DNA from: a virus
Virus record (IMG/VR): IMGVR_UViG_3300032322_000635
Span: 1-55,059 of that record
DNA length: 55,059 nt
Direction: 5' to 3' (one strand)
The notes beneath the pieces are model-generated. The model made no database searches. It was not told where the DNA came from and saw nothing but the letters and a program-made list of their open reading frames with translations. Within the stretch, counting starts at the first letter, position 1. Every line of letters starts with the position of its first letter. The translations under genes were made by a program, and so were the position numbers. This document shows, in pieces, positions 1 to 55,059 of the stretch.

Positions 1-123
1 ACCCAAAGCACAACAGCTTGGATATGCGTGGAGAACAAAGTGGTTAAGCCAGGCGCATGATCATCAGATATTGCCTCCAGGTGATTGGGCCATATGGTTA
101 TTGTTAGGCGGCCGCGGAGCTGG
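1..123. repeat. direct terminal repeat, left copy
   Basis: These 123 bases are identical to 54937-55059. The reading frame of the large terminase gene runs smoothly from the right end into position 124 when the copies are merged, so the repeat marks a circular assembly (circular or terminally redundant genome) rather than two separate loci. Its exact length is more likely set by the assembler than by packaging. Confidence 0.95.
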
Positions 124-34057: not shown

Positions 34058-34064
34058 GACAAAT

Positions 34065-36698
34065 ATGGCAACTAATCTAACTACTCCATTAATGAGCCAA
34101 CCCACTGGCGTTCCAATCACATCTCCTGGAAGTGGAACTGGCGCAATTCCAGGCGTAAATTATCAAAATCAAACAACCGATAATACCGCTGCTGGCGCTT
34201 TATTAGGTGGTTTAACTGGACTGGCTTTAAGCAAAGCATTTAAAGCTCCTGCCACACAAAATAAACCACAAGCTCCTAAATCTGTAGACGCTCCTAGCAT
34301 TTCTAATTTACCCTCTAAAAAGACAAAATCACCTGGCGCGGCTAGTATAGGTTCAGCTGCAGGAACTCCTGTCGGTGGAGGCTCCACTGGAGCTGTAGGT
34401 GGTTTAGCTTTCCCTAAAGGCACAACACAAGAACAAGTTGATGCTTATCATGGTAAATCAAACGGTCAATCTAATTACGTTATTGCAGGTGTTAACCCAT
34501 CTAATGGTGACATTATTGCTCAACCAAGTACAAGCATTGGTGGCGGAAACTTAACTGGCACTGGCTCAGGACCAACAGAGACAGCAACTCCTCCTGCTGA
34601 CCAAGACCCTGGAACATACTTTCAAGATCCGTACGGAAATGTATATGATGGAGACGGAAATCTTTATGCGGTAAAGAGTGGAGACACTTACTATGTGAAA
34701 GATCCTTCATCTTCTGATTCTTGGATCAATGCAAACAATCCACAGGAAGTCATTACAACGGATGAGCTATATAGCTCTACTGGTGGTGGTTATGAAACTC
34801 CATCTACAGACATATCACTTCCAGATATTGATGTTGGCGGTAGCGATTGGGATTATTCAAATAATGATCTTTATTACCCAACAGACCCATACGAATATTA
34901 CACACCTCCTGATGAGAATAGTTATTACACACCTCCAACAGACACTGGAAATTATTATCCTGATTATGGTTATGAAACTCCTTCATATGATACTAGCATC
35001 TACTCACCAATTGACACTACTGGCGGTATGTTTAGTAGTTTCTTTAAAAAAGGCGGTTTAGCAACTCCATTATTTAAAAGAGGCGGCTCTGTTAGAGGTT
35101 ATGCAGACGGTTCTCTTGTGGAAGCAGCTGAAGACATGGCTCCAAGCTCAACATTAAATCAAGAGCCAGTTGCTATGGAAACTACAAGCGAAACTAATCC
35201 ATTAGTGCGTACGCTTACTGATCTTCTTACTAACCCAACTGTTATAGGCGCTGGCGCTGGTGCGGCATTAGGTAACTTATCAGGCGGAAGTACTAATCAA
35301 GTTAATCAAGGTATTGACATGTCGCAGCTTGGCTTAAAACCAAGAACAACGACGTTTGGCATGGGCCCTGCAAATTTCGTGCCTTACGAAGATTACAGTC
35401 AACCATATGCTTTAACTACATCTCAAAATACAGGTGGCCTAGGTGCTGCAACATATCAACCTACAATACCTAATATGAGCGCACCTGGTGGAGGCACAAC
35501 AACAACGCCAACCACGCCAACAACGCCAACAACAACTGGCGGCATGACTACTGAACAGTTAACAGCTCTTATCAATTCTATTTTAAGTAATCAAAATACT
35601 GGCGGTGGAACCACTACAGGCGGCGGTACAACTACAGGTGGAGGTACAACCACGGGCGGAGGTACAACAACTGGTGGAGGTGCTACTACAGGTGGCGGAA
35701 CTACAACACCACAATACTACACAGATGGCAAAGGTAATATATACGACGCTAATGGTAATCTAGTCAAAGCCGCAAACACAGGTGGTAGAGATGACGATGA
35801 CGATGATGATGATGACAGAGATAGAGATAGATATAGAGATAGAGATAGAAGACCTTCTACAACAGCTCCACAATACTTCACGGATGGCAAAGGAAACATC
35901 TATGATGCTAACGGCAATTTAGTTAAAGCTGCTGGATCTACAACGGGAACGACAACTGGAACTGGGACAACAACTAGTGGCGGTGGATTGCCTACAACCA
36001 CAGGAACTACAACACCTGCTCCAATTAACCCTGGTTATGCAAATTTAGTAAACACTTACAATACTCAATTAAAGACTCTTCAAGACAAACTTGCTTTAGC
36101 TCCAGCAGCTGAAAAAGGAAGCATAAACTCTCAAATATTCCAGGTACAAAAGCTTTTAAGCAATTTAAATACAAAATTTAATCCAGCAACTGGAAAAGAA
36201 TATACTAGAAGAGAACTAAGTGAGATAGAACACGCCGCAAAGGAAGCTAAAAAAAATGCAGCAAGATCTACCTCCTCTTCAAGCCAACCTGCTAGACAAG
36301 CATCGTATAATTACGGCACTCGAGTAAGCCCATCTTCTGTATTAAATCGCTTTCTGGGAAGAGGAATGGCTGAAGGTGGATTAGCGTATGATATGCATCC
36401 TGACAATATGGTTGATCACGTGCCTATTATGGATGGTCGACATGATTACAGAGCTGGTGCTCGTGTAGAAGGCGCTGGCGATGGCCAGTCTGATGACATT
36501 CCAGCAATGCTTGCGGACGGTGAATACGTAATTGATGCTGAAACTGTGGCGCAATTAGGTAACGGATCTAATAAAGCTGGCGCTAAAGTGCTTGATCAAT
36601 TTAGAGAAAACATTCGCGAACATAAACGCAGCGCACCATTACATAAAATACCGCCAAAGAGTAAATCTCCATTGGCTTATCTCAAAGGAGCTAAATAA
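34065..36698 (+). CDS. large low-complexity virion protein with KKGG motif and conserved C-terminal box
   Basis: 877 aa. Parts: Gly/Ser/Thr-rich N-terminus; a Tyr/Asp/Pro-rich tract (about 220-320); FKKGGLATPLFKRGGSV and GYADGSLVEAAEDM near 327-360; more TTP and GGGTTT repeats (about 470-545); two near-identical boxes of the form TDGKGNIYDANGNLVKAA separated by an Asp/Arg/Tyr-rich tract; a helical part; and at about 790-860 GRHDYRAGARVEGAGDG, SDDIPAMLADGEYVIDAETV, AQLGNGSNKAGAKVLDQFRE. That last box is common in phage tape-measure and ejection proteins. Role probably internal virion or tail; the disordered middle makes a precise call impossible. Confidence 0.65.
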   Translation: MATNLTTPLMSQPTGVPITSPGSGTGAIPGVNYQNQTTDNTAAGALLGGLTGLALSKAFKAPATQNKPQAPKSVDAPSISNLPSKKTKSPGAASIGSAAGTPVGGGSTGAVGGLAFPKGTTQEQVDAYHGKSNGQSNYVIAGVNPSNGDIIAQPSTSIGGGNLTGTGSGPTETATPPADQDPGTYFQDPYGNVYDGDGNLYAVKSGDTYYVKDPSSSDSWINANNPQEVITTDELYSSTGGGYETPSTDISLPDIDVGGSDWDYSNNDLYYPTDPYEYYTPPDENSYYTPPTDTGNYYPDYGYETPSYDTSIYSPIDTTGGMFSSFFKKGGLATPLFKRGGSVRGYADGSLVEAAEDMAPSSTLNQEPVAMETTSETNPLVRTLTDLLTNPTVIGAGAGAALGNLSGGSTNQVNQGIDMSQLGLKPRTTTFGMGPANFVPYEDYSQPYALTTSQNTGGLGAATYQPTIPNMSAPGGGTTTTPTTPTTPTTTGGMTTEQLTALINSILSNQNTGGGTTTGGGTTTGGGTTTGGGTTTGGGATTGGGTTTPQYYTDGKGNIYDANGNLVKAANTGGRDDDDDDDDDRDRDRYRDRDRRPSTTAPQYFTDGKGNIYDANGNLVKAAGSTTGTTTGTGTTTSGGGLPTTTGTTTPAPINPGYANLVNTYNTQLKTLQDKLALAPAAEKGSINSQIFQVQKLLSNLNTKFNPATGKEYTRRELSEIEHAAKEAKKNAARSTSSSSQPARQASYNYGTRVSPSSVLNRFLGRGMAEGGLAYDMHPDNMVDHVPIMDGRHDYRAGARVEGAGDGQSDDIPAMLADGEYVIDAETVAQLGNGSNKAGAKVLDQFRENIREHKRSAPLHKIPPKSKSPLAYLKGAK

Positions 36699-38119
36699 TG
36701 GCTGATCTATTTCAAGGTTCGCTACTACCCTCAACAACCACGACCACGTCGACGCAACAAACTGCGCCTGAGTTTTATACTAATTACTTACAAGACGTTG
36801 CAAATCTTGGACAAAATGCAGTTCAACAAGGTGGTGTAGCAGGTTTTAGCCCATTACAAACTCAAGCATTTAACATGGCTCCATCAACTGCGTTCTCAGG
36901 ACAGGGTGCAGCAACACAAGCCCAAGCTTTAACAAACGCAGCTGGCACAACATCAGCTCCAAGCATCATTAATGACTACATGAATCCATACACTGGCAAA
37001 GTGGTGGATGAAATGGCGCGTCTACAGCAACAAAACTTGCAACGTAATGTATTGCCAACAATTGCAGGCGGCGGCGTAGGCACAGGATCATTCGGATCAC
37101 GCAGACAACAACAAGCTTTAGGCCAATCTTTATCTGATATGCAAGCTAACCTTACTGGCCAACAATATGGTGCTTTAAATACTGGCTATCAAAACGCTAT
37201 GCAATCTGCACAAGCTGACTTAAACCGTCAATTACAAGCTGGCCAAGGTATGAGTAACGTTGCACAACAACAATATCAAATTGGCAGCGGCGGATTAAAT
37301 ACATTGTCTTCACTTGGTTCTTTACAGCAAGCTCAAGGCCAAAGACAACTTGATTATCCAATGGTGCAAGCACAAAACTATGCAAACTTATTGCAAGGCC
37401 TAAACATTCCTACTGGCCAAGTACAACAAACCGTAGCACCAGGACAGCAAGGTCAATACACTAACAGTCCATTATCACAAATTGCTGGTATAGGCTCATT
37501 ACTTGCTGCTATCTCTGGCACTGGCACAACCAATAGCACAAGTATTGTTAATGATCTCATAAACGCAATCAGAGGCACTTCATCAACTCCTGCAGCAACT
37601 CCTCCAGCAACTGGTAAAGAAGGCGGCAGTGTTGTTGGTTATGCAGACGGTGGAACGGTTGAGCCAATAGACATGCAAGGGATGACAAAGCCATACGACT
37701 TGAGTCAAGGTGGAACAGAGATGTTTGAAAATAACCCAGTAGACCCAATCGTGTATACAGGCGGCACTCCAAACTTTGATGAAACAACTGGTGAATATAT
37801 TAACCCAGAAGTCAAGCCTTTAAATCCTGAAGTCACAGATATGCCAGTAGCTATGCCAACAGAAGCTCCAACCGACATGCCTGTGCGCAATACAAATACA
37901 CCATTGCCATACGAAAGAACTAATACACCAACACAGCAAGGTAAAACAAACCCAAGATTTCCATTTAAAATAAGAGACTTTAGTAATATGAATTTAGCTC
38001 CTAGAAATCTTATTAAAAACCTTGATAGAGTTCGTAACAGACCACAACGTGTTGAGCGGCCACAAATGCCTAGACGACCTTTAGCTGGCCTTAATTTTAT
38101 GAATAGAGGAAAAAGATAA
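36698..38119 (+). CDS. internal virion / DNA ejection protein
   Basis: 473 aa. The N-terminal two thirds is Gln/Ala-rich and helical: GFSPLQTQAFNMAPSTAFSG, MNPYTGKVVDEMARLQQQNL, GTGSFGSRRQQQALGQSLSD, QNAMQSAQADLNRQLQAGQG. The 'SPLQ..A', 'NPYT..VVD' and 'GSFGSRRQ' boxes are typical of podovirus ejection proteins that travel into the cell ahead of the DNA. A KEGGSVVGYADGGTVEP motif near 306-322 is the same as in other virion proteins here, followed by an acidic Pro-rich part and a basic end. One-base overlap with both neighbours. Confidence 0.75.
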   Translation: MADLFQGSLLPSTTTTTSTQQTAPEFYTNYLQDVANLGQNAVQQGGVAGFSPLQTQAFNMAPSTAFSGQGAATQAQALTNAAGTTSAPSIINDYMNPYTGKVVDEMARLQQQNLQRNVLPTIAGGGVGTGSFGSRRQQQALGQSLSDMQANLTGQQYGALNTGYQNAMQSAQADLNRQLQAGQGMSNVAQQQYQIGSGGLNTLSSLGSLQQAQGQRQLDYPMVQAQNYANLLQGLNIPTGQVQQTVAPGQQGQYTNSPLSQIAGIGSLLAAISGTGTTNSTSIVNDLINAIRGTSSTPAATPPATGKEGGSVVGYADGGTVEPIDMQGMTKPYDLSQGGTEMFENNPVDPIVYTGGTPNFDETTGEYINPEVKPLNPEVTDMPVAMPTEAPTDMPVRNTNTPLPYERTNTPTQQGKTNPRFPFKIRDFSNMNLAPRNLIKNLDRVRNRPQRVERPQMPRRPLAGLNFMNRGKR

Positions 38120-39786
38120 TGGCTGAAGAATTTTTAGACGAACAACCTATGGGTGGATTAGGTTCAGTTCAGCCTGAAACCACAAAAAAAGAAGAGTTTG
38201 TTGAATCTCCAAAAGCTTCAGAATCAGAGAAGAAAATCTCTGCTGCTCAAAAACTTCGCGATCAAAATTTAAAATTAAATGCTCAGATTGAAAAGCTAAT
38301 GAGTAGTTTAGATAGTAGGAATACGTCTCCTATTAATGAAAAATTACTAGCACTGTCTGAGGGCTTTTTAGCTCCTACAAAAACTGGTGGATTTGGTGAG
38401 TCAGCTGGTGCAGCTGCTGGCAAATATAGAGAAGTTGCTGGCGAAGAGAGAAAACGTTTAACGGAAGCAGAAAAAACTAAACTTGACTTCATGATCCAAC
38501 AATATGGTTTAAGCCAAAAAGATTACGAGCTTCAAAAGAAAATTGAAGGTCAAGAATTCATGCGTGATTACTTTAATAAAGGCCAACCTGGCGGTAAAAT
38601 TAATACTGCTGCTACTGAAGCTACCGCTGCAAGTGGCGAACCTAGCTTACAAGACATGATAGGCAGAGGTCAGCCAACTGGTGGAATCAGAACTATCACT
38701 TTATCTGACATCGCTAACGCTCCTGAAGAAGCTAGACCAACACTTGAGAAGCTTTATGATAATCAACAAAATGCACTTAAAATTGGCCAAGGTGAATTTG
38801 GCGCAACTAAAACATTCTTACCAGTGCTTAACGAATCTACAGATACATTAACTGTTCAACAAGCACGTGAATTAAATGCGTTGAAAAATGCCACAAGAGG
38901 CATGCCTATAGATCAAAAAGAAAAATACTTTATGGAGTGGTACGCTGAGAACGGTCTCGTCAAAGGCCCTGCTAAGGGAGCTGCTCATCCATACGCTACA
39001 GAAGAAATTGAAACGCCAAAACAAAAAGAGAAGCGCTTGAAAATTTCAGAAGCTATAGACACGGAGCGCGGTAAAGAAACTGTCAAACGTCAAGCTGCAG
39101 ACATTACTGCATATAACGATGAAGCTAAGCTTGGTTCAAACATTGCTATTAGCGCTAAGCAAATGTATGACTATGCAAGCGATCCAAACTTAGAAGGCAT
39201 GTTTGGTTTACTAGCCAAGAAAGGCATGACAAACGCATTCTTTACAGCTATGAAAGAGCCAGTAAAAATTGGTAGCGTATCTATTGGCGTAGGTAACATT
39301 GAAGACGTTATTAGAACTGCTGGCGGTACAGACGAACAAATCGCGGCCGCAGCTGCATTCAAGAAACCAGCGTCAGAATCTGAATTAGCTTTCACACGTA
39401 TCTATCTTGCTAAACAAGGTGCTATTACAGAAGGCGAACGTGCAATTGTTAGAAACATCATGCCTAGCCTATCAGACCCAGCTAAGATTGTAAGACTTAA
39501 ATCTGAGTTAATGATTGCTAGAGCTCAATTTGATCAACAAAAAGCAGATTTGTTTAATTCTTATGTTAGACAGAATCCGTCTGCTACAGCGTTTGATTTT
39601 GAGCACGATGCAAGCTCACCATATAAATCATTACTTAAAAATTACGCTGAGCATACGGCTGAGATATCTAATGAATATATGCCAGGCGCTGTTAAAGATC
39701 CGCTCAAAGGTGTATCGTCAACAAAAGACAAGGCAAGAAAAGGCTCAAGCCTTTGGAATAAAGTACAAGAACAATACAAGGACTAA
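38119..39786 (+). CDS. internal virion protein (helical)
   Basis: 555 aa. A coiled-coil N-terminus (ASESEKKISAAQKLRDQNLK; NAQIEKLMSSLDSRNTSPIN) precedes a Glu/Lys/Ala-rich helical region and a more globular C-terminus (GNIEDVIRTAGGTDEQIAAA; FTRIYLAKQGAITEGERAIV; RAQFDQQKADLFNSYVRQNP). It sits between an ejection protein and the virion transglycosylase, the usual place of a third internal protein. No catalytic motif seen. Confidence 0.68.
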   Translation: MAEEFLDEQPMGGLGSVQPETTKKEEFVESPKASESEKKISAAQKLRDQNLKLNAQIEKLMSSLDSRNTSPINEKLLALSEGFLAPTKTGGFGESAGAAAGKYREVAGEERKRLTEAEKTKLDFMIQQYGLSQKDYELQKKIEGQEFMRDYFNKGQPGGKINTAATEATAASGEPSLQDMIGRGQPTGGIRTITLSDIANAPEEARPTLEKLYDNQQNALKIGQGEFGATKTFLPVLNESTDTLTVQQARELNALKNATRGMPIDQKEKYFMEWYAENGLVKGPAKGAAHPYATEEIETPKQKEKRLKISEAIDTERGKETVKRQAADITAYNDEAKLGSNIAISAKQMYDYASDPNLEGMFGLLAKKGMTNAFFTAMKEPVKIGSVSIGVGNIEDVIRTAGGTDEQIAAAAAFKKPASESELAFTRIYLAKQGAITEGERAIVRNIMPSLSDPAKIVRLKSELMIARAQFDQQKADLFNSYVRQNPSATAFDFEHDASSPYKSLLKNYAEHTAEISNEYMPGAVKDPLKGVSSTKDKARKGSSLWNKVQEQYKD

Positions 39787-39789
39787 GCC

Positions 39790-41064
39790 ATGGAAATGGA
39801 TTTCACCAAAGCAGATCTTACTGAAGATCAAATTGCTAATATTAAAAAGATTGGAGCCAAGGCCGAGGAATATGGCATTGACCCTGATTTAGCATTGGCT
39901 GTCGCTTGGAGAGAAAACCGTTTTACTATGGGTGCAGACTCACCTAAAGGTGCTATTGGCATTATGCAAGTTATGCCTGGCAACGCTAAAGGCCTTGGAG
40001 TTAAGGTTGAAGACTTACGCAATCCTGATATCAACATTGACGCTGGCATGAAAATATTGAGAGAAAATCTTGATATGTTTGATGGCAATGAAAGAGCTGC
40101 GCTTGTAGCGTATAACGCCAGCCCTAACACAGCAAAGCGTTACATGAAGAACAAAGAAAATCCCGATACAATTCCTGAAGAGACAAGAATATATTTAGAA
40201 GATATCCACTCTGTACGTCCATTGATTGCTGACGCAGAAGAAGAAGAGATGGAAGGCCCATCTTTTGAAAGGCCAACTGCATCAGCTGTAGAAAAACCAT
40301 CTTTTTCATCAGCGGAAGAAGAGGCTGCTTGGATAGCAGAACATCCTGGACTTGCTGGCGCAGGTGCTGGAGCTGCTTCAGGTATTGGAGAGAAGCTATA
40401 TAAGTACGGACAAGAATCTGTATCAAAAGCAAGGCCTGATATCATTTCTGACGAAGCTATGAAAGAAGCTATGAAAAGCACTAGTTCAGGTGATAAGTGG
40501 GCTAAAGCTATTGGTGGCCCAGGTGGACAAGATGTAACAACCGCCGCAAAAAACTTACAGCTAAGCAAGGGCCTAGAGGGCGGTGAGACCCTAACTAAAT
40601 CAGGCATCATATTACCTGCTGGAGAACAAGAAAAATTAGATGCTGAGCTTGCTAAAAAACAAGCTGAGCTTGAAGAAAGACTTACAACAAAAAGAGCCAA
40701 AGCAAGTAAATATTTAAAAGAAAAAGTGCCATTCTATGAAAAAGGCGTTGCAGCTGGTAAGGTTATGAGCAAGGGCGCAGCTAAGATTTTATCTAAACTA
40801 GCGCCAGTGTCTACAACCGCTACAGGCTTGATTGGTGGATCCCAGTTAGGTGAGTCAGCAGAAAGATTTAAACGTGGAGACATTAAAGGCGGATTGTTAT
40901 CAGGCGTGACAGGCGCAACTAATCTTATAGCTACACAACCATTCTTTCCAGTGGCCCGCGGAGCTGCAGGACTTGCATCTATACCACTAGATATTGCTGA
41001 TTATATGTACGACCCTGAACAATACAGCGTAGTCAAAGAATCCATCAAAAAGAAAAAAGATTAA
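39790..41064 (+). CDS. virion-associated lytic transglycosylase
   Basis: 424 aa. The N-terminal domain (about 12-140) is an SLT (lysozyme-like) fold: ALAVAWRENRF with catalytic Glu42, GAIGIMQVMPGNAKGLGV at 55-72, and AALVAYNASPNTAKRYM near 108-125. It cleaves the glycan strand of peptidoglycan so that DNA can pass during ejection. The C-terminal 280 aa are helical with an Ala/Gly-rich part (PGLAGAGAGAASGIGEKLYK) and a hydrophobic section near 350-395, possibly membrane-contacting. It is the last gene of the late block and its stop overlaps the convergent SprT-like gene by 4 bases. Confidence 0.85.
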   Translation: MEMDFTKADLTEDQIANIKKIGAKAEEYGIDPDLALAVAWRENRFTMGADSPKGAIGIMQVMPGNAKGLGVKVEDLRNPDINIDAGMKILRENLDMFDGNERAALVAYNASPNTAKRYMKNKENPDTIPEETRIYLEDIHSVRPLIADAEEEEMEGPSFERPTASAVEKPSFSSAEEEAAWIAEHPGLAGAGAGAASGIGEKLYKYGQESVSKARPDIISDEAMKEAMKSTSSGDKWAKAIGGPGGQDVTTAAKNLQLSKGLEGGETLTKSGIILPAGEQEKLDAELAKKQAELEERLTTKRAKASKYLKEKVPFYEKGVAAGKVMSKGAAKILSKLAPVSTTATGLIGGSQLGESAERFKRGDIKGGLLSGVTGATNLIATQPFFPVARGAAGLASIPLDIADYMYDPEQYSVVKESIKKKKD

Positions 41065-41405
41065 AGCTCTTTCGGATCATAGCCATAGATCGTGGCAATC
41101 TTATGAGTCCATTTCTTAAAAGTTTTATCATGCTTCTCATAATTGGCTTTGCCTTGGAGATAAAGCAGCATATGGACCATCTCATGGAGGATTGTCTTAC
41201 AGATATTGTCGAAGTGAGTTTGTCTTGCTAATGATATTGTAATGACGTGCGGGGAAGGTTGATACATACCCAGTATCTCAGGATCGTTCACTATAATCCA
41301 CTCTATCTGGGATGGGAGTGGCATCTGAATCTTATCAAACGGCGGCAGCTTACAGAACAATGCATACATTGCTTTTACATGCTCTATTGTGCCTAAGTTT
41401 GTCAT
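41061..41405 (-). CDS. SprT-like zinc metalloprotease
   Basis: 114 aa. The HEMVH box at 74-78 (H-E-x-x-H zinc motif), a third possible ligand His92 in KHDKTFKKW, and length near 110 aa fit the minimal SprT-like family. Related enzymes remove DNA-protein crosslinks or act in stress responses; a role on phage DNA is inference. It is the last gene of the leftward early block and converges on the late block with a 4-base overlap and no terminator between. Confidence 0.75.
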   Translation of the reverse strand: MTNLGTIEHVKAMYALFCKLPPFDKIQMPLPSQIEWIIVNDPEILGMYQPSPHVITISLARQTHFDNICKTILHEMVHMLLYLQGKANYEKHDKTFKKWTHKIATIYGYDPKEL

Positions 41406-41608
41406 GACTTAAATAATCTCCAATCGCTATTTGCACCAGGTTTAATTTTCTTGGGAAGCTTGATAAGCCCAAGGCTTTCTAATTCGTTAAGTCTAGCATT
41501 GTTTATACCACATGCGATAACAATTTTTTTGCGGTTGGTATTAGGGTATTTTTCCATATACTCTGTAATTTCTTGAATCAGTTCATCTTTTGATCTTTTT
41601 CTTGGCAT
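41402..41608 (-). CDS. small HTH-like DNA-binding protein
   Basis: 68 aa, basic. SKDELIQEITEYMEKYPNTN is followed by RKKIVIACGINNARLNELES and LGLIKLPKKIKPGANSDWRL; the middle part has the length and pattern of a helix-turn-helix (K-x-x-I-A-x-x-x-G-I-x-x-x-x-L). Likely a regulator or replication accessory. Its stop overlaps the start of the SprT-like gene by four bases. Confidence 0.6.
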   Translation of the reverse strand: MPRKRSKDELIQEITEYMEKYPNTNRKKIVIACGINNARLNELESLGLIKLPKKIKPGANSDWRLFKS

Positions 41609-41610
41609 AA

Positions 41611-41976
41611 TTAGTAGAAAATGTGGTTTTGGATAACTACTTTGGCTGGCTTGCTTTTAGCCCAAATAGGTTTAGGTTTGAGATTGACTTCATGAAAGTA
41701 GTAGGCTCCCTTAGAGGTGTCTTTGACTTTAAAATTTAGCACTTGATGCGCTATGTTTAAGAACGGTCGCAATTCCGCAGCGCTTCGTTCAGGTGGCTTA
41801 ATTTTACCATACCAAGAAAATTGATAAGGCCTACGCAGCTCCTTACAAATATTCTCAGGTTTAAACTCAGCCCTTCGATACAACACCATCATCACGGCCT
41901 GCTGGCCAATCAGTGGCTCACCTCTTGCTTCCATGTACCCGACCTGGGCCAGGCACACTAATGCTGCTTCTAACAT
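41611..41976 (-). CDS. SleB-type cell wall hydrolase (Hydrolase_2)
   Basis: 121 aa. YMEARGEPLIGQQAVMMVLY at 14-33 and RRPYQFSWY at 48-56 match the Hydrolase_2 family of lytic transglycosylases; the C-terminus (GAYYFHEVNLKPKPIW; VVIQNHIFY) completes the signature. The likely catalytic Glu is Glu16. No cleavable signal peptide is evident. A very strong ribosome site (TAAGGAGG) precedes it on the minus strand. It is a second soluble wall hydrolase, apart from the late endolysin, coded in the leftward early block. Confidence 0.82.
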   Translation of the reverse strand: MLEAALVCLAQVGYMEARGEPLIGQQAVMMVLYRRAEFKPENICKELRRPYQFSWYGKIKPPERSAAELRPFLNIAHQVLNFKVKDTSKGAYYFHEVNLKPKPIWAKSKPAKVVIQNHIFY

Positions 41977-42011
41977 ACTACCTCCTTACTAAAGTCTCTT
42001 TGCGTGAGAGA

Positions 42012-42236
42012 TTACTTGCGATCCTCCAAGAGCCTTGCGACGTCTCTATTAACCGACTTCACAATTTCCACGCAGCGAGCATGCTCTTCCAATCGAATGC
42101 GATCAGCTATGACCGCTTCAATCTTGTTAGCAAATTCCAGTACATCTAGTGACTCATCCGTTGGGTCTGTATACAAACCTTTAGGATCATTGTTCTTACA
42201 ATAGAAAAATATTTGTTTTACTAACTCTTCATTCAT
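42012..42236 (-). CDS. hypothetical protein
   Basis: 74 aa, acidic N-terminus and a helical C-terminus (VLEFANKIEAVIADRIRLEE; CVEIVKSVNRDVARLLEDRK). The end resembles short phage proteins with 'HARCVEIVKSV', often coded near recombination genes. Its start overlaps the stop of the preceding gene by 4 bases (ATGA on the minus strand). Function unknown. Confidence 0.78.
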   Translation of the reverse strand: MNEELVKQIFFYCKNNDPKGLYTDPTDESLDVLEFANKIEAVIADRIRLEEHARCVEIVKSVNRDVARLLEDRK

Positions 42237-42448
42237 TCTTGCTCTCTTTTCATTCTAAACAACTCCCAATTGATAACCACGTTACGGGCCAAGCCCTTTT
42301 GTGCCATCGTTTGGTAAGGGTTAAAATCGCTATGTAGAAACTCTTCAAACACATCGTGCTTAGCTAACTGCATTTCATGAAGGTCAGCTTCAGTTTGAGT
42401 TTCAAAAATCTTGCCATCTTTAGTTTTAAATGCGCTGATAATGTCCAT
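42233..42448 (-). CDS. hypothetical protein
   Basis: 71 aa when begun at the ATG at 42448, which leaves one base after the nuclease stop. A longer frame to 42538 would overlap the nuclease gene and looks false. Sequence MDIISAFKTKDGKIFETQTE and LHEMQLAKHDVFEEFLHSDF recalls a short phage family whose role is unknown ('KTKDGKxFETQxEA'). Confidence 0.72.
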   Translation of the reverse strand: MDIISAFKTKDGKIFETQTEADLHEMQLAKHDVFEEFLHSDFNPYQTMAQKGLARNVVINWELFRMKREQE

Positions 42449-42449
42449 A

Positions 42450-43277
42450 TTATTTATGTTTATTCTTAAGTTGCCAAAAATACAGAAGATGCGTAAACAT
42501 CTCCCACCCACGTTGCAAGTCTTCTTCAGACCATTCAATTATTTTACAAGGAACTGTTTTTTTGCCGTCAACTTCTAGCTCTTGCCTGGCTACAAAAATA
42601 TTGGCACAACGCGCATTAGGAATACCTAGCCCTACTCGGTATGCCGCTAACTGCATGAGATGATCTTCGTATGCTACCACATCTTTAGGGTCAGTAAAAT
42701 CTTTAGTTTTGACGTCAACCACAATCCCACCTTCTATGACTTCATTTGGTGCATGTAAGTCACATTTTCCAGCAAAACCTAATTCATGACCGAAAGATCG
42801 CTCAGCAACCCATCCAATTCTTCCATAATGAGCTTCTAACGCATTAACTGTACATTGGACATGGATAGGGTACCCAGGATGAGAAATGCCCTCAAAAAAC
42901 GATTCTATGGCTGCATGGATAGCCGTACCTTTATCAGCCGCATCTCGACCTTGTTGTTTAGAGTCAGAGATAATTCGGTCAATATAGACTTGCTCATCTT
43001 CGCCATGGCGTCTTGTTGAGGTTAAGGCTGCCATAAGTACCTGAGTTTGCATCCAGGCCACTAAAGCTGGCTTAGCCGCAACTCCAAGTATAGTAGTCAC
43101 AGACGGAACTAAGTCCATTGTGCGAGCGTCTCTTAAAGTTGTATTACGTTCTTTACCGTTCTTGCCAGTAATAGTGTACTGCGGTATGCCGTCTCGAGTG
43201 TACCAATGATTAGATTCTGAAGCTCTAACCTTTGGAGATTCAGATAAATACATAAAGCTCTTCTTTTCTTCAGTCAT
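42450..43277 (-). CDS. PD-(D/E)XK exonuclease (RecB/Cas4-like)
   Basis: 275 aa. The active site reads in order: GTAIHAAIESF (His121), FAGKCDLHAP (Asp173), GIVVDVKTKDF (Asp188-x-Lys190) and HLMQLAAYRVG (Gln209, Tyr213). No Cys cluster for a Cas4-type iron-sulphur centre is seen, so lambda-exonuclease-like or RecB-like phage recombination nuclease fits better. It lies beside the SSB and HNH genes in the leftward block, suggesting recombination or DNA end processing. No recombinase (annealing) partner was found. Confidence 0.82.
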   Translation of the reverse strand: MTEEKKSFMYLSESPKVRASESNHWYTRDGIPQYTITGKNGKERNTTLRDARTMDLVPSVTTILGVAAKPALVAWMQTQVLMAALTSTRRHGEDEQVYIDRIISDSKQQGRDAADKGTAIHAAIESFFEGISHPGYPIHVQCTVNALEAHYGRIGWVAERSFGHELGFAGKCDLHAPNEVIEGGIVVDVKTKDFTDPKDVVAYEDHLMQLAAYRVGLGIPNARCANIFVARQELEVDGKKTVPCKIIEWSEEDLQRGWEMFTHLLYFWQLKNKHK

Positions 43278-43533
43278 CTTTAAACTCCATATCTAGTTGA
43301 TCACTATCAGTGATGACATCATCAAACTCTGTATCTGTTGTGCCTCTACATATATGATGCATTGCATTCATTTGCACTTGGCCTTCATGCACATCTAATG
43401 CGCCGTCAAATATAAATCCACACCCTTTTAAAAAGAGTTCCATGTTCGCAATCACATCACTTAAGTCATCAGATTCAAACTCTAATTTATTTTTATAGCC
43501 GTCGTCTTTCATTTCTAATTTATACTTAACCAT
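43270..43533 (-). CDS. hypothetical acidic protein
   Basis: 87 aa, strongly acidic (ends DTEFDDVITDSDQLDMEFKDD in two pieces). LEFESDDLSDVIANMELFLK and GCGFIFDGALDVHE suggest a small alpha/beta fold. Overlaps the nuclease gene start by 8 bases, so probably co-translated with it. Function unknown. Confidence 0.75.
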   Translation of the reverse strand: MVKYKLEMKDDGYKNKLEFESDDLSDVIANMELFLKGCGFIFDGALDVHEGQVQMNAMHHICRGTTDTEFDDVITDSDQLDMEFKDD

Positions 43534-43542
43534 GATTATCCT

Positions 43543-44046
43543 TTATTTAAAGCGAGCGAATGAGCCGTGAAGATCAACTCTAGTTTTTTGTAAAAATTTA
43601 ATAGCAGATAGTTTGTCTTTAAATAATTTAACAATTGGAACATTGTCACGATAAATAGAAGCTCTGTAATAAATATAAACTTTGTTGTTTAACTTAACTT
43701 TTTGTATGCTCATGCCTTTGACGCCAGTTTTGTTATCTTTGTTTATACGCCTATTATGTTGATTTTGGCTTGGATTTGCTATGCGCAAATTTTTGATGTC
43801 ATTGTTTAATTTATTTCCATCAATGTGGTCAATCATTTTAGGAAGGTAGCCATGGTGGTACATCCAAATTACTCGATGGGCCATCGTTGTTCTGCCATTA
43901 ATAGACACTGCCAAATAACCAGCGCTATGCGGATGCTCAGCTTTGGCTCCCTTTTTCTTTCCATACTTTCCATCTTCTCTGTAAAACAAACTTCCATTTT
44001 GGTAATAAAACATCTCTTGCATTTTTTCTTGTGTTAATTGACTCAT
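43543..44046 (-). CDS. HNH homing-type endonuclease with AP2-like DNA-binding domain
   Basis: 167 aa. The HNH domain has MAHRVIWMYHHG at 55-66, DHIDGNKLNNDIKNLRIANP at 73-92 and QNQHNRR, all typical of free-standing phage HNH enzymes. Residues about 107-160 (TGVKGMSIQK, YYRASIYRDNVPIVKLFKDK) resemble the AP2 DNA-binding domain often attached. A mobile selfish gene that cuts DNA of related phages is the standard explanation. AT-rich (about 35 percent GC in my reading) compared with neighbours. Confidence 0.85.
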   Translation of the reverse strand: MSQLTQEKMQEMFYYQNGSLFYREDGKYGKKKGAKAEHPHSAGYLAVSINGRTTMAHRVIWMYHHGYLPKMIDHIDGNKLNNDIKNLRIANPSQNQHNRRINKDNKTGVKGMSIQKVKLNNKVYIYYRASIYRDNVPIVKLFKDKLSAIKFLQKTRVDLHGSFARFK

Positions 44047-44055
44047 ATGTATCTC

Positions 44056-44724
44056 CTATCCCTCTCTTAAAAATCGATGTAATTCTTTTGAATAAAATTC
44101 AATCTTTGCAGCTTCTTGAACTGAGTCATCTTTAAGGCCAATACGTGTATTATATTTTTCAATATTGCCACGTAAGAATCCTATGTATTGCTCAGGTGGA
44201 AACTTAGCTCTAATGTAATCAAGCATCTCAATCCCGCCCTGAGTGTAGTGAGGTGGGTGATTGATCATGTCAGGTTTAGGTTTTTCTTCTCTATCCAATT
44301 CGGCATGCCTTTCTCTATGATGATATTTACAAAGCCATACAACTTCTAAAGGTTTGTTATAGTCTTCATGATGTCCAACTACATGTTCGGTAGTGCCACA
44401 CTTCTCACAAGGCTGCCTAACTAACTCACCTTTTTGGATTGCATAAGCAACCTTTTGATGGGCCGTCTTCTTTAATTTATTTTCTGCGAGCCAAAACTTT
44501 TTATGTGGAGCTACTTGTTTGAAGGAAAGTAATTTCTTACCTTCCCTCCGTTCTTTGTAGTACGTTGACTTGCATGATATACAATAACTTTCCACACCAT
44601 CCCTAGTAAGAACATTTTTATAGAACTCATCTACTGACTTCTCTATTTTGCATCTAGTGCAAAACTTTGTAGACGCTAGTTTAAATGGCAATGGATCTTT
44701 TGCGTTATCTGCAATATTTTCCAT
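44056..44724 (-). CDS. HNH/zinc-ribbon domain fused to DUF3310
   Basis: 222 aa. Part 1 (20-55): zinc ribbon CTRCKIEKSVDEFY with a second pair CISCK (Cys22, 25, 48, 51). Part 2 (100-140): CEKCGTTEHVVGHHEDYNKP and WLCKYHHRERHAEL, an HNH-like metal centre with Cys106, 109, 132 and His118, 119, 135, 136. Part 3 (152-222): DMINHPPHYTQGGIEMLDYI and GNIEKYNTR, clearly DUF3310, usually a free-standing phage protein near nucleotide-metabolism genes. The fusion is unusual. Either the HNH element inserted in front of a resident DUF3310 gene, or it is a true two-domain enzyme. Confidence 0.8.
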   Translation of the reverse strand: MENIADNAKDPLPFKLASTKFCTRCKIEKSVDEFYKNVLTRDGVESYCISCKSTYYKERREGKKLLSFKQVAPHKKFWLAENKLKKTAHQKVAYAIQKGELVRQPCEKCGTTEHVVGHHEDYNKPLEVVWLCKYHHRERHAELDREEKPKPDMINHPPHYTQGGIEMLDYIRAKFPPEQYIGFLRGNIEKYNTRIGLKDDSVQEAAKIEFYSKELHRFLREG

Positions 44725-44726
44725 AG

Positions 44727-45386
44727 TTAGAAAGGTAAATCACTTTCCATGTCATCAAAAGAAGCTCCTCCAACGGCAACCTCAGTAAAGCCATTATCAT
44801 AACTAGCCTTACCATGAATCTTTTCCCACTCAGGTGACAATCTAATTTTATCTTTAAGACCATCAGAAAATGATTCAAACAACTCCATATCAGCTTCATC
44901 AATTTCAAAGATTTTTAATTCATTATATCCATCAGGTAATCCTGCTTTTTTAATGTTAGCTGGGACTGGATTGATATTAAGAATGTTGGTGTATGTCTTA
45001 CCATTATTTTCAGATTGTCCGACAGTGATCATTGCCCATTGACCTAAAATGTTTTTTAATTCAAAACCATTCTTTTCAGACTCAGTAAAAGGTCTACCGC
45101 GCCAAGCTTCAAGGTCTTTACGCAACGCTGCCTTCTCAACCAAAAACGCAGAATAGTTTTTAGACATGGTCATTGGTTTGCCATCTGCGGTAGTAAGCGG
45201 ATTGCCCTCTGAATCTTCTGAATGCACCTCAAATTGAATCATGACTTTCTTAACGTGTTTAACGTTACCCATGTATTCTGATTTTTGAGTGCCTAGTTCA
45301 ATGATTCTATAACATCTAGCAAGATGCATGCCAGGTGGCACTGGTATAAAACTTGATGTACTGCTGTCTTTAACTACTAAACTCAT
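44727..45386 (-). CDS. ssb: phage single-stranded DNA-binding protein
   Basis: 219 aa. It has an OB-like beta-rich N-terminus (IPVPPGMHLARCYRIIELGT; VKHVKKVMIQFEVHSED; FELKNILGQWAMITV) and ends in an acidic tail DDMESDLPF, the classic SSB C-terminal tip that recruits replication and repair partners. It is longer than host-type SSB and fits the phage DUF669-like group. Protects ssDNA at phage forks and during recombination with the adjacent nuclease. The start overlaps the end of the preceding (upstream) gene. Confidence 0.82.
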   Translation of the reverse strand: MSLVVKDSSTSSFIPVPPGMHLARCYRIIELGTQKSEYMGNVKHVKKVMIQFEVHSEDSEGNPLTTADGKPMTMSKNYSAFLVEKAALRKDLEAWRGRPFTESEKNGFELKNILGQWAMITVGQSENNGKTYTNILNINPVPANIKKAGLPDGYNELKIFEIDEADMELFESFSDGLKDKIRLSPEWEKIHGKASYDNGFTEVAVGGASFDDMESDLPF

Positions 45387-45588
45387 TCTGTTCTCCTAGG
45401 TTTGTATTAAAAGTTACTTCTCTAAATTTACCGTCAGACAGCCCACACTCAAATCGAATGTGATTCCAATCGTCAGGCGTTGCTACTCCATTTATGGCCC
45501 GACCCATAGCCTGTATCAGCTTTTCTTGTCGTTCCAACATGTCCTGGTGTTGCGCAGCTTGTTGCCAATCATCTTCATAGGAGACCAT
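45370..45588 (-). CDS. hypothetical helical protein
   Basis: 72 aa from the ATG at 45588, which has an excellent GGAGGT ribosome site; the next upstream ATG (45606) lacks one. DDWQQAAQHQDMLERQEKLI suggests a coiled coil; IRFECGLSDGKFREVTF looks like a strand pair. It overlaps both the membrane protein gene and the SSB gene. Function unknown. Confidence 0.7.
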   Translation of the reverse strand: MVSYEDDWQQAAQHQDMLERQEKLIQAMGRAINGVATPDDWNHIRFECGLSDGKFREVTFNTNLGEQNEFSS

Positions 45589-45817
45589 ATATACCTCCAA
45601 AGACAATTGCTATTAACCCTAAAACCGAGATAGCCACAATTAAAAAATCAACTGTTATTGGCTTGCTTGGTTTATACAATCTTTTCTCTAGCAACACTTG
45701 TTGCAATGCGTCCGCATCTTTACTAGCTCTAGTTTCAAAAGGCTCTTGATATAACAAACCTATTTGAACGCCTGCCTTTGTCATGTACGGCGGTGTTTTT
45801 CTGTAATGCTGTTTCAT
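45575..45817 (-). CDS. small membrane protein, first gene of the leftward operon
   Basis: 80 aa. A basic and aromatic N-terminus is followed by one C-terminal membrane helix (VDFLIVAISVLGLIAIVFGG, about 56-75). AGAGGAG lies 6-8 bases upstream of the ATG. First transcribed gene after the divergent control region. No family recognised; a membrane-associated early protein is the safest description. Confidence 0.68.
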   Translation of the reverse strand: MKQHYRKTPPYMTKAGVQIGLLYQEPFETRASKDADALQQVLLEKRLYKPSKPITVDFLIVAISVLGLIAIVFGGIYGLL

Positions 45818-46166: not shown

Positions 46167-46391
46167 ATGAATTTATACGAGTACTTTCAAGACAAACCTC
46201 GAGGATTTAAAACACAGTTTGCAAAGAAGGTAGGCATTACTAAGACCTGGCTGTCACAAATTATTAGTGGCAGACAAATTCCTAGTTCACCTTTATGCAA
46301 TGCGATAGAAAGATTTACGGACGGCCATGTAAAGAGAGAGGAACTTAGGCCTGACATTTTTCTTAGGCCTGACATTTTTGGAGATACATAA
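46167..46391 (+). CDS. YdaS/Cro-like helix-turn-helix regulator
   Basis: 74 aa. FAKKVGITKTWLSQIISGRQ (about 18-37) is a clear helix-turn-helix, followed by IPSSPLCNAIERFTDGHVKR and EELRPDIF, the ending used by YdaS-type Cro analogues of cryptic prophages such as Rac. Two copies of LRPDIF result from an 18-bp duplication at the gene end. In Rac the order is ydaS-ydaT-ydaU-ydaV; here the DUF1376 (YdaU) gene follows directly. Likely represses one or both divergent early promoters. Confidence 0.8.
   Translation: MNLYEYFQDKPRGFKTQFAKKVGITKTWLSQIISGRQIPSSPLCNAIERFTDGHVKREELRPDIFLRPDIFGDT
46344..46379 (+). repeat. perfect 18-bp tandem duplication in the regulator gene
   Basis: The 18 bases at 46344-46361 are repeated exactly at 46362-46379 and code for the hexapeptide LRPDIF twice. 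Identity in all third positions means it is recent. It adds six residues after the normal C-terminal box and keeps the frame. Confidence 0.95.
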
Positions 46392-51180: not shown

Positions 51181-51293
51181 TGACAACGTTTGACATTTTT
51201 TTGTTAGTCATCTTCTTGACGTTTTTTTTAATAGGCTTCGTATCGGGCTACGTTATTCATAAGGAGTTTGGCGATGGCGAGAGTACTGATTAA
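51180..51293 (+). CDS. 37-aa single-span membrane peptide
   Basis: GTG start in a TAGTG overlap with the previous stop. TTFDIFLLVIFLTFFLIGFV is one long membrane helix, followed by SGYVIHKEFGDGESTD. It ends inside the next gene. Placement, overlap pattern and clear membrane profile support it despite its size. Unknown role. Confidence 0.55.
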   Translation: MTTFDIFLLVIFLTFFLIGFVSGYVIHKEFGDGESTD

Positions 51294-51516
51294 TCATTAT
51301 CGCAACGTAGCTATCGAATGCAGCCGCAAAGATAAGTGGTCAGTCCTAGTCGTAGGATGGGCGCCAGTAAGAAGAGTTAAGGTGCTTAACAGCGAAGTCG
51401 ACAAAGAGTGGAAGACGTTTGACTACGATTTAAATAGCGCGATTGATCGTATGGTTAACAGTGCGATAGAAGATACGGCCGCCGCAGAGCTCAAAAAGAT
51501 TAGGCAGCATTCATGA
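51274..51516 (+). CDS. hypothetical protein
   Basis: 80 aa from ATG 51274, seven bases after AAGGAG. Basic strand-rich start (ARVLINHYRNVAIECSRKDK; WSVLVVGWAPVRRVKVL) and helical end (DLNSAIDRMVNSAIEDTAAA). Last gene before the hairpin upstream of pqqA. No family recognised. Confidence 0.72.
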   Translation: MARVLINHYRNVAIECSRKDKWSVLVVGWAPVRRVKVLNSEVDKEWKTFDYDLNSAIDRMVNSAIEDTAAAELKKIRQHS

Positions 51517-51566: not shown

Positions 51567-51595
51567 AAATTGCTTGGATAACAAAGGATAATATT

Positions 51596-51667
51596 ATGTG
51601 GACAACTCCAGCTGCAACAGAAATGAGATTTGGCTTCGAAGTAACTATGTACGTAATGAACAAGTAA
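51596..51667 (+). CDS. pqqA: PqqA-like precursor peptide of the cofactor PQQ (auxiliary metabolic gene)
   Basis: 23 aa. It begins WTTPAATEMRFGFE and continues VTMYVMNK after it. PqqA peptides are 22-39 aa, start with Trp within the first residues and share the box E-V-T-x-Y. Here Glu15 and Tyr19 stand in that box (FGFEVTMY). In the known pathway the radical-SAM enzyme PqqE, with PqqD as peptide chaperone, links this Glu to this Tyr; later enzymes free and oxidise them into PQQ, the cofactor of methanol and other dehydrogenases. AAAGGA lies eight bases upstream of the ATG. No pqqB-E genes are in the window, so the peptide would use the host enzymes. The gene lies between two hairpins, flanked by 9-bp direct repeats. 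Alternatives: a decoy that ties up PqqD, or a non-translated relic. Chance occurrence of the full box with correct length, start and ribosome site is very unlikely. Confidence 0.85.
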   Translation: MWTTPAATEMRFGFEVTMYVMNK

Positions 51668-51708: not shown

Positions 51709-51733
51709 TAAGGGGAGCTTCGGCTCCCTTTTT
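51709..51733 (+). terminator. strong intrinsic terminator after pqqA
   Basis: GGGAGC (51713-51718) pairs with GCTCCC (51723-51728) across a TTCG tetraloop, extended by A-T pairs and followed by TTTTT (51729-51733). This is the best terminator in the window. It ends the pqqA message about 40 bases after its stop codon. Confidence 0.88.
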
Positions 51734-51908
51734 ATTGCCTATTTTTTAAGCAATTATCCCTACACCCTATTTTCCCAAAAAGCAACATATTTATATAATA
51801 TTTTATTAAATTATTTACCTCCAGGGTATTGTAATCCTTACTTGTTTAACCTAATATTACACATAGCAACACATTATTAACTTAAATACAAAGAAAGAGA
51901 AGATACAT
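51734..51908 (+). promoter_or_regulatory. AT-rich gap with two candidate promoters
   Basis: No gene was seen here. A perfect TATAAT stands at 51794-51799, within a 34-base stretch that is nearly all A/T, though its -35 is poor. A better balanced pair is TTGTAA (51829-51834) and TAATAT (51852-51857), 17 bases apart, 4 of 6 matches each. Either could drive the operon starting at 51909 after the strong terminator. The A/T stretch could also be a DNA-unwinding element of an origin, unproven. Confidence 0.4.
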
Positions 51909-52193
51909 ATGAATACATTAGTAAACTATAAAGTACCAGCAGTAGATACTTTAGGTGACCTCCTAGCTCGTATATCTGAATTACAAGCTGAAGCTGACCT
52001 TATCAAAGACGCTTTAAAAGCTGAAGGCCCAGGCGCTTACGAAGGCTCACAATTCAAAGCCAACGTAATCGTTTCAAACCGTTCAAACATCGACTTCAAA
52101 CAAGTATTTGCAGAATGCTCAGTACCAGCTGAGGTTATTGCCCGCAATACTAAGGTTCAAGAAGTTGTTTCAGTCAAACTAACATCAAGATAA
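51909..52193 (+). CDS. hypothetical phage protein
   Basis: 94 aa. LGDLLARISELQAEADLIKD is a coiled helix; YEGSQFKANVIVSNRSNIDF and VQEVVSVKLTSR form strands. This 'LLAxIxxLQAExDxIKDxLK...GxxFxATVS' layout is a common phage family coded in early operons, without a proven role. First gene of the last early transcription unit. Confidence 0.8.
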   Translation: MNTLVNYKVPAVDTLGDLLARISELQAEADLIKDALKAEGPGAYEGSQFKANVIVSNRSNIDFKQVFAECSVPAEVIARNTKVQEVVSVKLTSR

Positions 52194-54894: not shown

Positions 54895-55059
54895 GTTACT
54901 TAAAGACGATGATGTAAAGCGTAAGTTCTTAGCGTTACCCAAAGCACAACAGCTTGGATATGCGTGGAGAACAAAGTGGTTAAGCCAGGCGCATGATCAT
55001 CAGATATTGCCTCCAGGTGATTGGGCCATATGGTTATTGTTAGGCGGCCGCGGAGCTGG
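54878..55059 (+). CDS. terL: large terminase subunit, 5' end
   Basis: ATG at 54878 opens the frame that continues at position 124 of the window. Translation gives TSVAELLKDDDVKRKFLALP then KAQQLGYAWRTKWLSQAHDH before the Walker A motif, the usual N-terminal linker of large terminases. The reading stays open through the whole terminal repeat. Confidence 0.93.
   Translation, partial: MTSVAELLKDDDVKRKFLALPKAQQLGYAWRTKWLSQAHDHQILPPGDWAIWLLLGGRGA
54937..55059. repeat. direct terminal repeat, right copy
   Basis: Exact copy of 1-123. It ends inside the Walker A coding region of the terminase gene. Confidence 0.95.

What the first reader, a model, noticed from the sequence alone, without database searches (positions are those of the whole stretch)
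51596..51667. A phage-encoded PqqA: precursor peptide of the redox cofactor PQQ
Seen: a 23-codon gene with ribosome site whose product carries Trp2, the FGFEVTMY box and Glu15/Tyr19 at the i, i+4 spacing used for PQQ. Known: PqqE (radical SAM, with PqqD) joins exactly such a Glu and Tyr, and PQQ is the cofactor of methanol dehydrogenases central to methylotrophs. Inferred: during infection the phage raises substrate supply for host PqqB-E, keeping methanol oxidation and energy flow high; or it binds PqqD and rewires the pathway. I know of no described phage-encoded PqqA function, so this is the best candidate for an undescribed system in the window.
Basis: partly seen in the sequence, partly recalled or inferred. 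Interest (0 to 1): 0.93.

Follow-up and report, generated by a model that had tools for sequence, protein, structure and literature searches.

The report
Phage-borne PqqA, a cofactor precursor peptide
This virus, probably of methanol-eating bacteria, carries a 23-amino-acid gene for the raw material from which its host makes the methanol-burning cofactor PQQ; the same tiny gene, mostly unannotated, sits in several unrelated groups of methylotroph phages, probably to keep the host's energy supply running during infection.

Summary
Window 51596-51667(+) encodes MWTTPAATEMRFGFEVTMYVMNK, a full PqqA (PF08042 40.3 bits, cut-off 21.1; TIGR02107 38.8, cut-off 20), with a ribosome site and a strong terminator. 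The window is an apparently complete podovirus-like genome (123-bp terminal repeat) with no PqqE, methanol dehydrogenase or tyrosine integrase.

The peptide is letter-for-letter the operon PqqA of a Methylophilaceae bacterium; that family carries 1-12 pqqA copies (median 4). Relatives found through a neighbouring gene keep pqqA in place wherever enough DNA is held, under purifying selection (pN/pS about 0.08). It is also in every Methylophilales phage isolate the search reached (P19250A, MEP301, Venkman, MEP401/402, Melnitz x4), unannotated or under a wrong-strand ORF where viewed, and in at least 150 IMG/VR contigs. Forty-six whole viral records each hold one pqqA and no PqqE over cut-off; one also holds a methanol dehydrogenase and a formate dehydrogenase.

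Best reading: a substrate-only auxiliary metabolic gene feeding host PqqB-E. Phage PqqA is not new: Coutinho et al. 2020 reported one in a Lake Baikal T4-like phage. New here are its breadth, its solitary state, and its being overlooked in cultured phages. Function is inferred, not tested.

The parts
51596..51667 (+). pqqA: 23-aa PQQ precursor peptide, Glu15 and Tyr19 being the residues that become PQQ
   Evidence: identical to the pqqABCDE-operon PqqA of Methylophilaceae bacterium 11 (L278)
51584..51589 (+). ribosome binding site AAAGGA, 6 nt before the ATG
   Evidence: sequence read directly
51710..51737 (+). intrinsic terminator: GGGAGC-TTCG-GCTCCC stem followed by a T tract
   Evidence: fold z-score -3.1; same layout after 105 of 117 host and 69 of 148 viral pqqA against 0-4 in shuffles
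51909..52193 (+). 94-aa gene of unknown function directly downstream; syntenic marker used to fetch relatives
   Evidence: no Pfam hit
51268..51516 (+). 82-aa gene of unknown function directly upstream
   Evidence: ORF list; no Pfam hit

Best explanation
The gene is a genuine pqqA acting as a substrate-only auxiliary metabolic gene. During infection the phage makes extra PqqA; host PqqE with PqqD cross-links Glu15 to Tyr19, host PqqB and PqqC finish the cofactor, and PQQ loads the host's methanol dehydrogenases (XoxF or MxaF), so methanol oxidation and electron supply keep running while host transcription falls. Shown here: identity of the peptide, its phage setting, its conservation, absence of PqqE from the phage, presence of PqqE and of many pqqA copies in the host family. 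Inferred: that the host is a Methylophilaceae bacterium, expression during infection, processing by host enzymes, higher PQQ or methanol oxidation, and benefit to the phage.
For: Full-length PqqA profile hits. The peptide is identical to the operon PqqA of Methylophilaceae bacterium 11, followed by confirmed pqqB, C, D, E, and to 62 of 143 bacterial copies read. Conserved in place in relatives that were found through neighbour genes, pS 0.41 against pN 0.033, so selection acts on the peptide. One copy, and no PqqE over cut-off, in 46 of 46 whole viral records; no PqqB-E near pqqA in 184 viral loci. Present in cultured Methylophilales phages of different kinds, from Zobellviridae to a T4-like Kyanoviridae, but not found in the structural sister MW202545 or in the Caulobacter, Roseobacter and Pelagibacter phages with related portals: the trait appears to follow the host, not the virion lineage. 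Host family keeps a median of 4 pqqA copies, PqqE usually one over cut-off (PMC4109929), as expected if precursor dose matters. One viral record couples pqqA with a PQQ methanol dehydrogenase and a formate dehydrogenase.
Against: No expression, processing or fitness data. The host of this phage is inferred from the peptide and from related phages, not shown. No clear promoter was found before the window's copy, so it may depend on read-through. If PqqB-E or the dehydrogenase limits PQQ use, extra PqqA would do little.
Confidence: 0.8

Rival explanations
1. Decoy or regulator: the phage peptide occupies PqqD/PqqE or feeds back on PQQ synthesis so as to slow or re-route host metabolism.
For: PqqA binds PqqD (established knowledge), and the phage brings only the peptide.
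Against: The peptide is identical to the normal host substrate and keeps Glu15 and Tyr19 in every syntenic relative; a decoy would be free to lose them. Hosts themselves keep several copies. A viral contig adds pqqA beside a PQQ methanol dehydrogenase.
Confidence: 0.07
2. Passenger gene: picked up from the host and kept by chance, without function.
For: It is tiny and has a ready-made terminator, so it is cheap to carry; one copy per phage.
Against: pN/pS about 0.08 in syntenic copies, about 0.4 synonymous differences per site without loss of the frame, and presence at different places in unrelated phages.
Confidence: 0.06
3. Integration-site copy: a temperate phage that inserts into host pqqA and carries a piece that restores the gene.
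For: Hosts have many pqqA copies; a Cro/YdaS-like regulator sits at a divergent switch-like point of the window.
Against: No tyrosine integrase in the window; its portal is in none of 187 Methylophilaceae genomes searched, though that search had no positive control; the best match to any host copy read is only 92% over 66 bases and falls within the gene; a restoring copy is usually next to an integrase.
Confidence: 0.02
4. The window, or the gene in it, is bacterial DNA mistaken for viral.
For: This does happen: two 'Acinetobacter phage' hits lie on contigs with a pqqABCDE operon.
Against: Terminases, portal, capsid, tail and replication genes, a terminal repeat, and no PqqE; cultured isolates carry the same gene.
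Confidence: 0.01

Closest known systems
Host PqqA of Methylophilaceae (TIGR02107 / PF08042)
   Same: Identical 23-residue peptide, same Trp2, GFEVTMY box, Glu15/Tyr19, ribosome-site and terminator layout.
   Different: In a phage genome, alone, at best 92% identical in DNA over 66 bases to any host copy read, with no pqqB-E beside it.
PqqA of Lake Baikal viral population VP_266 (Coutinho et al. 2020, PMC7678222)
   Same: Phage-encoded PqqA in a predicted Methylophilaceae virus; same proposed purpose.
   Different: That one is a T4-like fragment with its own methanol dehydrogenase; here an apparently complete podovirus-like genome with pqqA and no dehydrogenase, and the trait is shown across many lineages.
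psbA and similar photosynthesis genes of cyanophages (from general knowledge)
   Same: Phage replaces a short-lived component of host energy metabolism that must be renewed during infection.
   Different: PqqA is not an enzyme or a complex subunit but a peptide consumed as the substrate for a small-molecule cofactor.

Membership tests
PqqA (TIGR02107 / PF08042) | profile score over the curated cut-off, full length | tested here: met
   40.3 bits against 21.1 and 38.8 bits against 20
PqqA (TIGR02107 / PF08042) | Glu and Tyr at i, i+4 inside a GxExTxY box | tested here: met
   Glu15 and Tyr19; kept in all syntenic relatives
PqqA (TIGR02107 / PF08042) | PqqB-E available to process it | tested here: inconclusive
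   PqqE absent from the phage but over cut-off in 112 of 120 genomes of the presumed host family; the actual host is not known
PqqA (TIGR02107 / PF08042) | is cross-linked by PqqE/PqqD and yields PQQ | not testable with these tools
   needs biochemistry; identity with an operon-encoded host PqqA makes it likely
Phage auxiliary metabolic gene | host-type metabolic gene inside a true phage genome | tested here: met
   phage genes on both sides and a terminal repeat
Phage auxiliary metabolic gene | kept by selection in related phages | tested here: met
   synteny and pN/pS about 0.08
Phage auxiliary metabolic gene | expressed in infection and changes host metabolism | not testable with these tools
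   no transcript or metabolite data

The most novel reading that the evidence does not exclude
A general rule for methylotroph phages: unrelated lineages have each taken up one copy of the same 24-codon gene, which supplies not an enzyme but the consumable peptide substrate of a cofactor pathway. That would be a substrate-only auxiliary metabolic gene, among the smallest known, missed by gene callers in most cultured methylophages.
Probability: 0.7. Interest if true: 0.68.

Novelty: new member of a known kind. Interest (0 to 1): 0.55.

Why it matters
If true, PQQ supply is a common point at which viruses act on methanol oxidation in freshwater and the sea. It can be tested directly, because cultured phage-host pairs (Venkman and Melnitz on H5P1, MEP301, MEP401/402, P19250A) already carry the gene without its being annotated. 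It also warns that viral surveys miss metabolic genes shorter than the usual gene-length cut-off, and suggests a simple marker (pqqA without pqqB-E in a viral contig) for assigning phages to methylotroph hosts.

Tried and rejected
A pattern for the GLEVTxY type of PqqA (Klebsiella-like, Leu13/14 box as CTN only) found no viral contig, so the trait looks tied to GFE-type hosts, though the pattern is not exhaustive. Two Acinetobacter 'phage' hits: the one viewed lies in a pqqABCDE operon and both were set aside as bacterial contigs. Integration-site repair was rejected. A sigma-70 promoter before pqqA was sought: only a slight excess in viral copies (37% against 28% shuffled) and none in hosts, so no promoter is claimed. 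MEP431-434 and Venkman EXVC038S exist by name but no record of them was reached, so 'every isolate' means every one the search reached. No gene tree of pqqA was made: 66-72 bp is too short. Clustering of viral loci by shared genes depends on fragments and was not used to count lineages. One Pfam call failed on a coordinate slip.

Full report
What is there. Window 51596-51667(+) encodes MWTTPAATEMRFGFEVTMYVMNK, with AAAGGA six bases before the ATG and a GGGAGC-TTCG-GCTCCC hairpin followed by a T tract about 43-63 nt after the stop. Pfam and NCBIfam both name it PqqA well over their cut-offs.

The setting is a phage. The 55,059-base record is an IMG/VR virus with terminase large subunit at the left end, portal, head protease/capsid, tail, transglycosylase and replication genes, RusA and a Ref-like nuclease, and terminase small subunit at the right end. 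Its first and last 123 bases are identical, so it is apparently a complete genome of about 54.9 kb, which gives weight to absences. No PqqE, no PQQ-dependent dehydrogenase and no tyrosine integrase were found. Portal relatives are phages of Caulobacter, Roseobacter and Pelagibacter.

It is conserved. Relatives were fetched through the neighbouring 94-aa gene and the small terminase, not through pqqA. All 11 relatives of the 94-aa gene whose contigs reach far enough upstream have pqqA just before it; the four without it have contigs that begin only 115-345 bp before the marker gene. Twelve syntenic copies give pS 0.41 and pN 0.033. The more distant small-terminase relatives (37-51% identity) do not show it in the DNA held, nor does the structural sister MW202545, whose capsid protein is 89% identical: the gene is accessory, not part of the virion lineage.

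It is widespread. tblastn of the phage collection found it, 73-100% identical, in P19250A, MEP301, Venkman, MEP401, MEP402, four Melnitz phages and a Manatee Spring podovirus. In the regions viewed it is unannotated or covered by an ORF on the other strand. The pattern fixes GFExTMY, so invariance of those residues there is by construction; Pro5 was not fixed and is invariant in 150 distinct sequences. In 46 whole viral records from about 20 to 356 kb there is exactly one pqqA each, no PqqE over cut-off, and a PQQ dehydrogenase in one only; those records were chosen because they hold pqqA, so this says nothing about how many viruses lack it.

The host side. All 120 Methylophilaceae genomes sampled have pqqA, 113 of them two or more copies (median 4, maximum 12), while PqqE over cut-off is found in 112. 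That Methylophilaceae carry many pqqA but one pqqBCDE set is published (PMC4109929), and in a methylotroph the copies are expressed differently (PMC9851590). The window's peptide equals the one at the head of the pqqBCDE operon in Methylophilaceae bacterium 11, whose four enzymes were confirmed by profile. Host pqqA genes are followed by a terminator in 105 of 117 cases and viral ones in 69 of 148, against 0-4 in shuffled sequence: often a compact, self-ended cassette in both.

How it most likely works. PqqA is consumed stoichiometrically (established knowledge: PqqE with PqqD joins Glu and Tyr, then the peptide is trimmed and converted to PQQ). Catalysts made before infection persist; the consumable need not once host transcription declines. 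A phage therefore needs only this one gene to keep PQQ flowing to methanol dehydrogenase. The hosts' own amplification of pqqA, and not of pqqB-E, points the same way. Steps not shown: the identity of the host, expression, processing, change of PQQ or methanol flux, and fitness gain.

A telling exception. Record G199 (IMGVR_UViG_3300025120_009955, 72 kb) holds pqqA within 9 kb of a 624-aa PQQ methanol dehydrogenase with a DEWDYDG motif (typical of lanthanide XoxF, from general knowledge), a 946-aa formate dehydrogenase alpha subunit and a quinoprotein-dehydrogenase-associated SoxYZ-like carrier, beside phage-type ribonucleotide reductase and PHROG families of very high score. It fits the methanol-oxidation reading and resembles the Lake Baikal viruses of Coutinho et al. 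2020; no structural phage gene was identified among the proteins tested, so its viral nature rests on IMG/VR and those families.

Novelty. The idea is not new: Coutinho et al. 2020 (PMC7678222) reported PqqA in viral population VP_266 and proposed the function, and a 2026 survey lists viral pqqA (PMC13188868). The papers on MEP301, MEP401/402 and Melnitz do not report it in their main text (the single PQQ mention in the Melnitz paper is a medium component); the P19250A paper is not in the library. New here are its breadth, its solitary state, the selection on it, and its hidden presence in cultured phages. Verdict: a real gene with a well-supported presumed role, a new member of a known kind, and a readily testable general pattern.

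Noticed in passing
L333 990-2864, 2944-5784, 9071-9790 (IMGVR_UViG_3300025120_009955, about 33990-42790 of 72356): Viral record with a XoxF-like PQQ methanol dehydrogenase, a formate dehydrogenase alpha subunit, pqqA and a SoxYZ-like carrier within 9 kb: an apparent phage methanol-to-CO2 oxidation cluster.
   Followed up: partly
window 1-123 and 54937-55059: 123-bp identical terminal direct repeat: the record is apparently a complete genome of about 54.9 kb.
   Followed up: partly
window 46167-46391 (+): YdaS/Cro-like HTH protein at the divergent point between the leftward block (41061-45817) and the rightward early genes, like a lambdoid switch, yet no tyrosine integrase was found.
   Followed up: partly
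L005, L013, L015, L021, L028, L032, L040, L048, L055: Viral contigs with a different PqqA type (such as [23 protein letters not shown]), suggesting phages of PQQ-making hosts outside Methylophilaceae.
   Followed up: no
L326 (CAKLQF020000010.1, filed as Acinetobacter phage MD-2021a): Record in the phage collection holds pqqBCD, a radical SAM gene and ppk; it looks like bacterial DNA misfiled as phage.
   Followed up: partly
L296 2067-2195 (-) and L295 2961-3056 (-): Annotated hypothetical ORFs in ctXG6705 and Melnitz lie antisense over pqqA and are probably spurious.
   Followed up: partly
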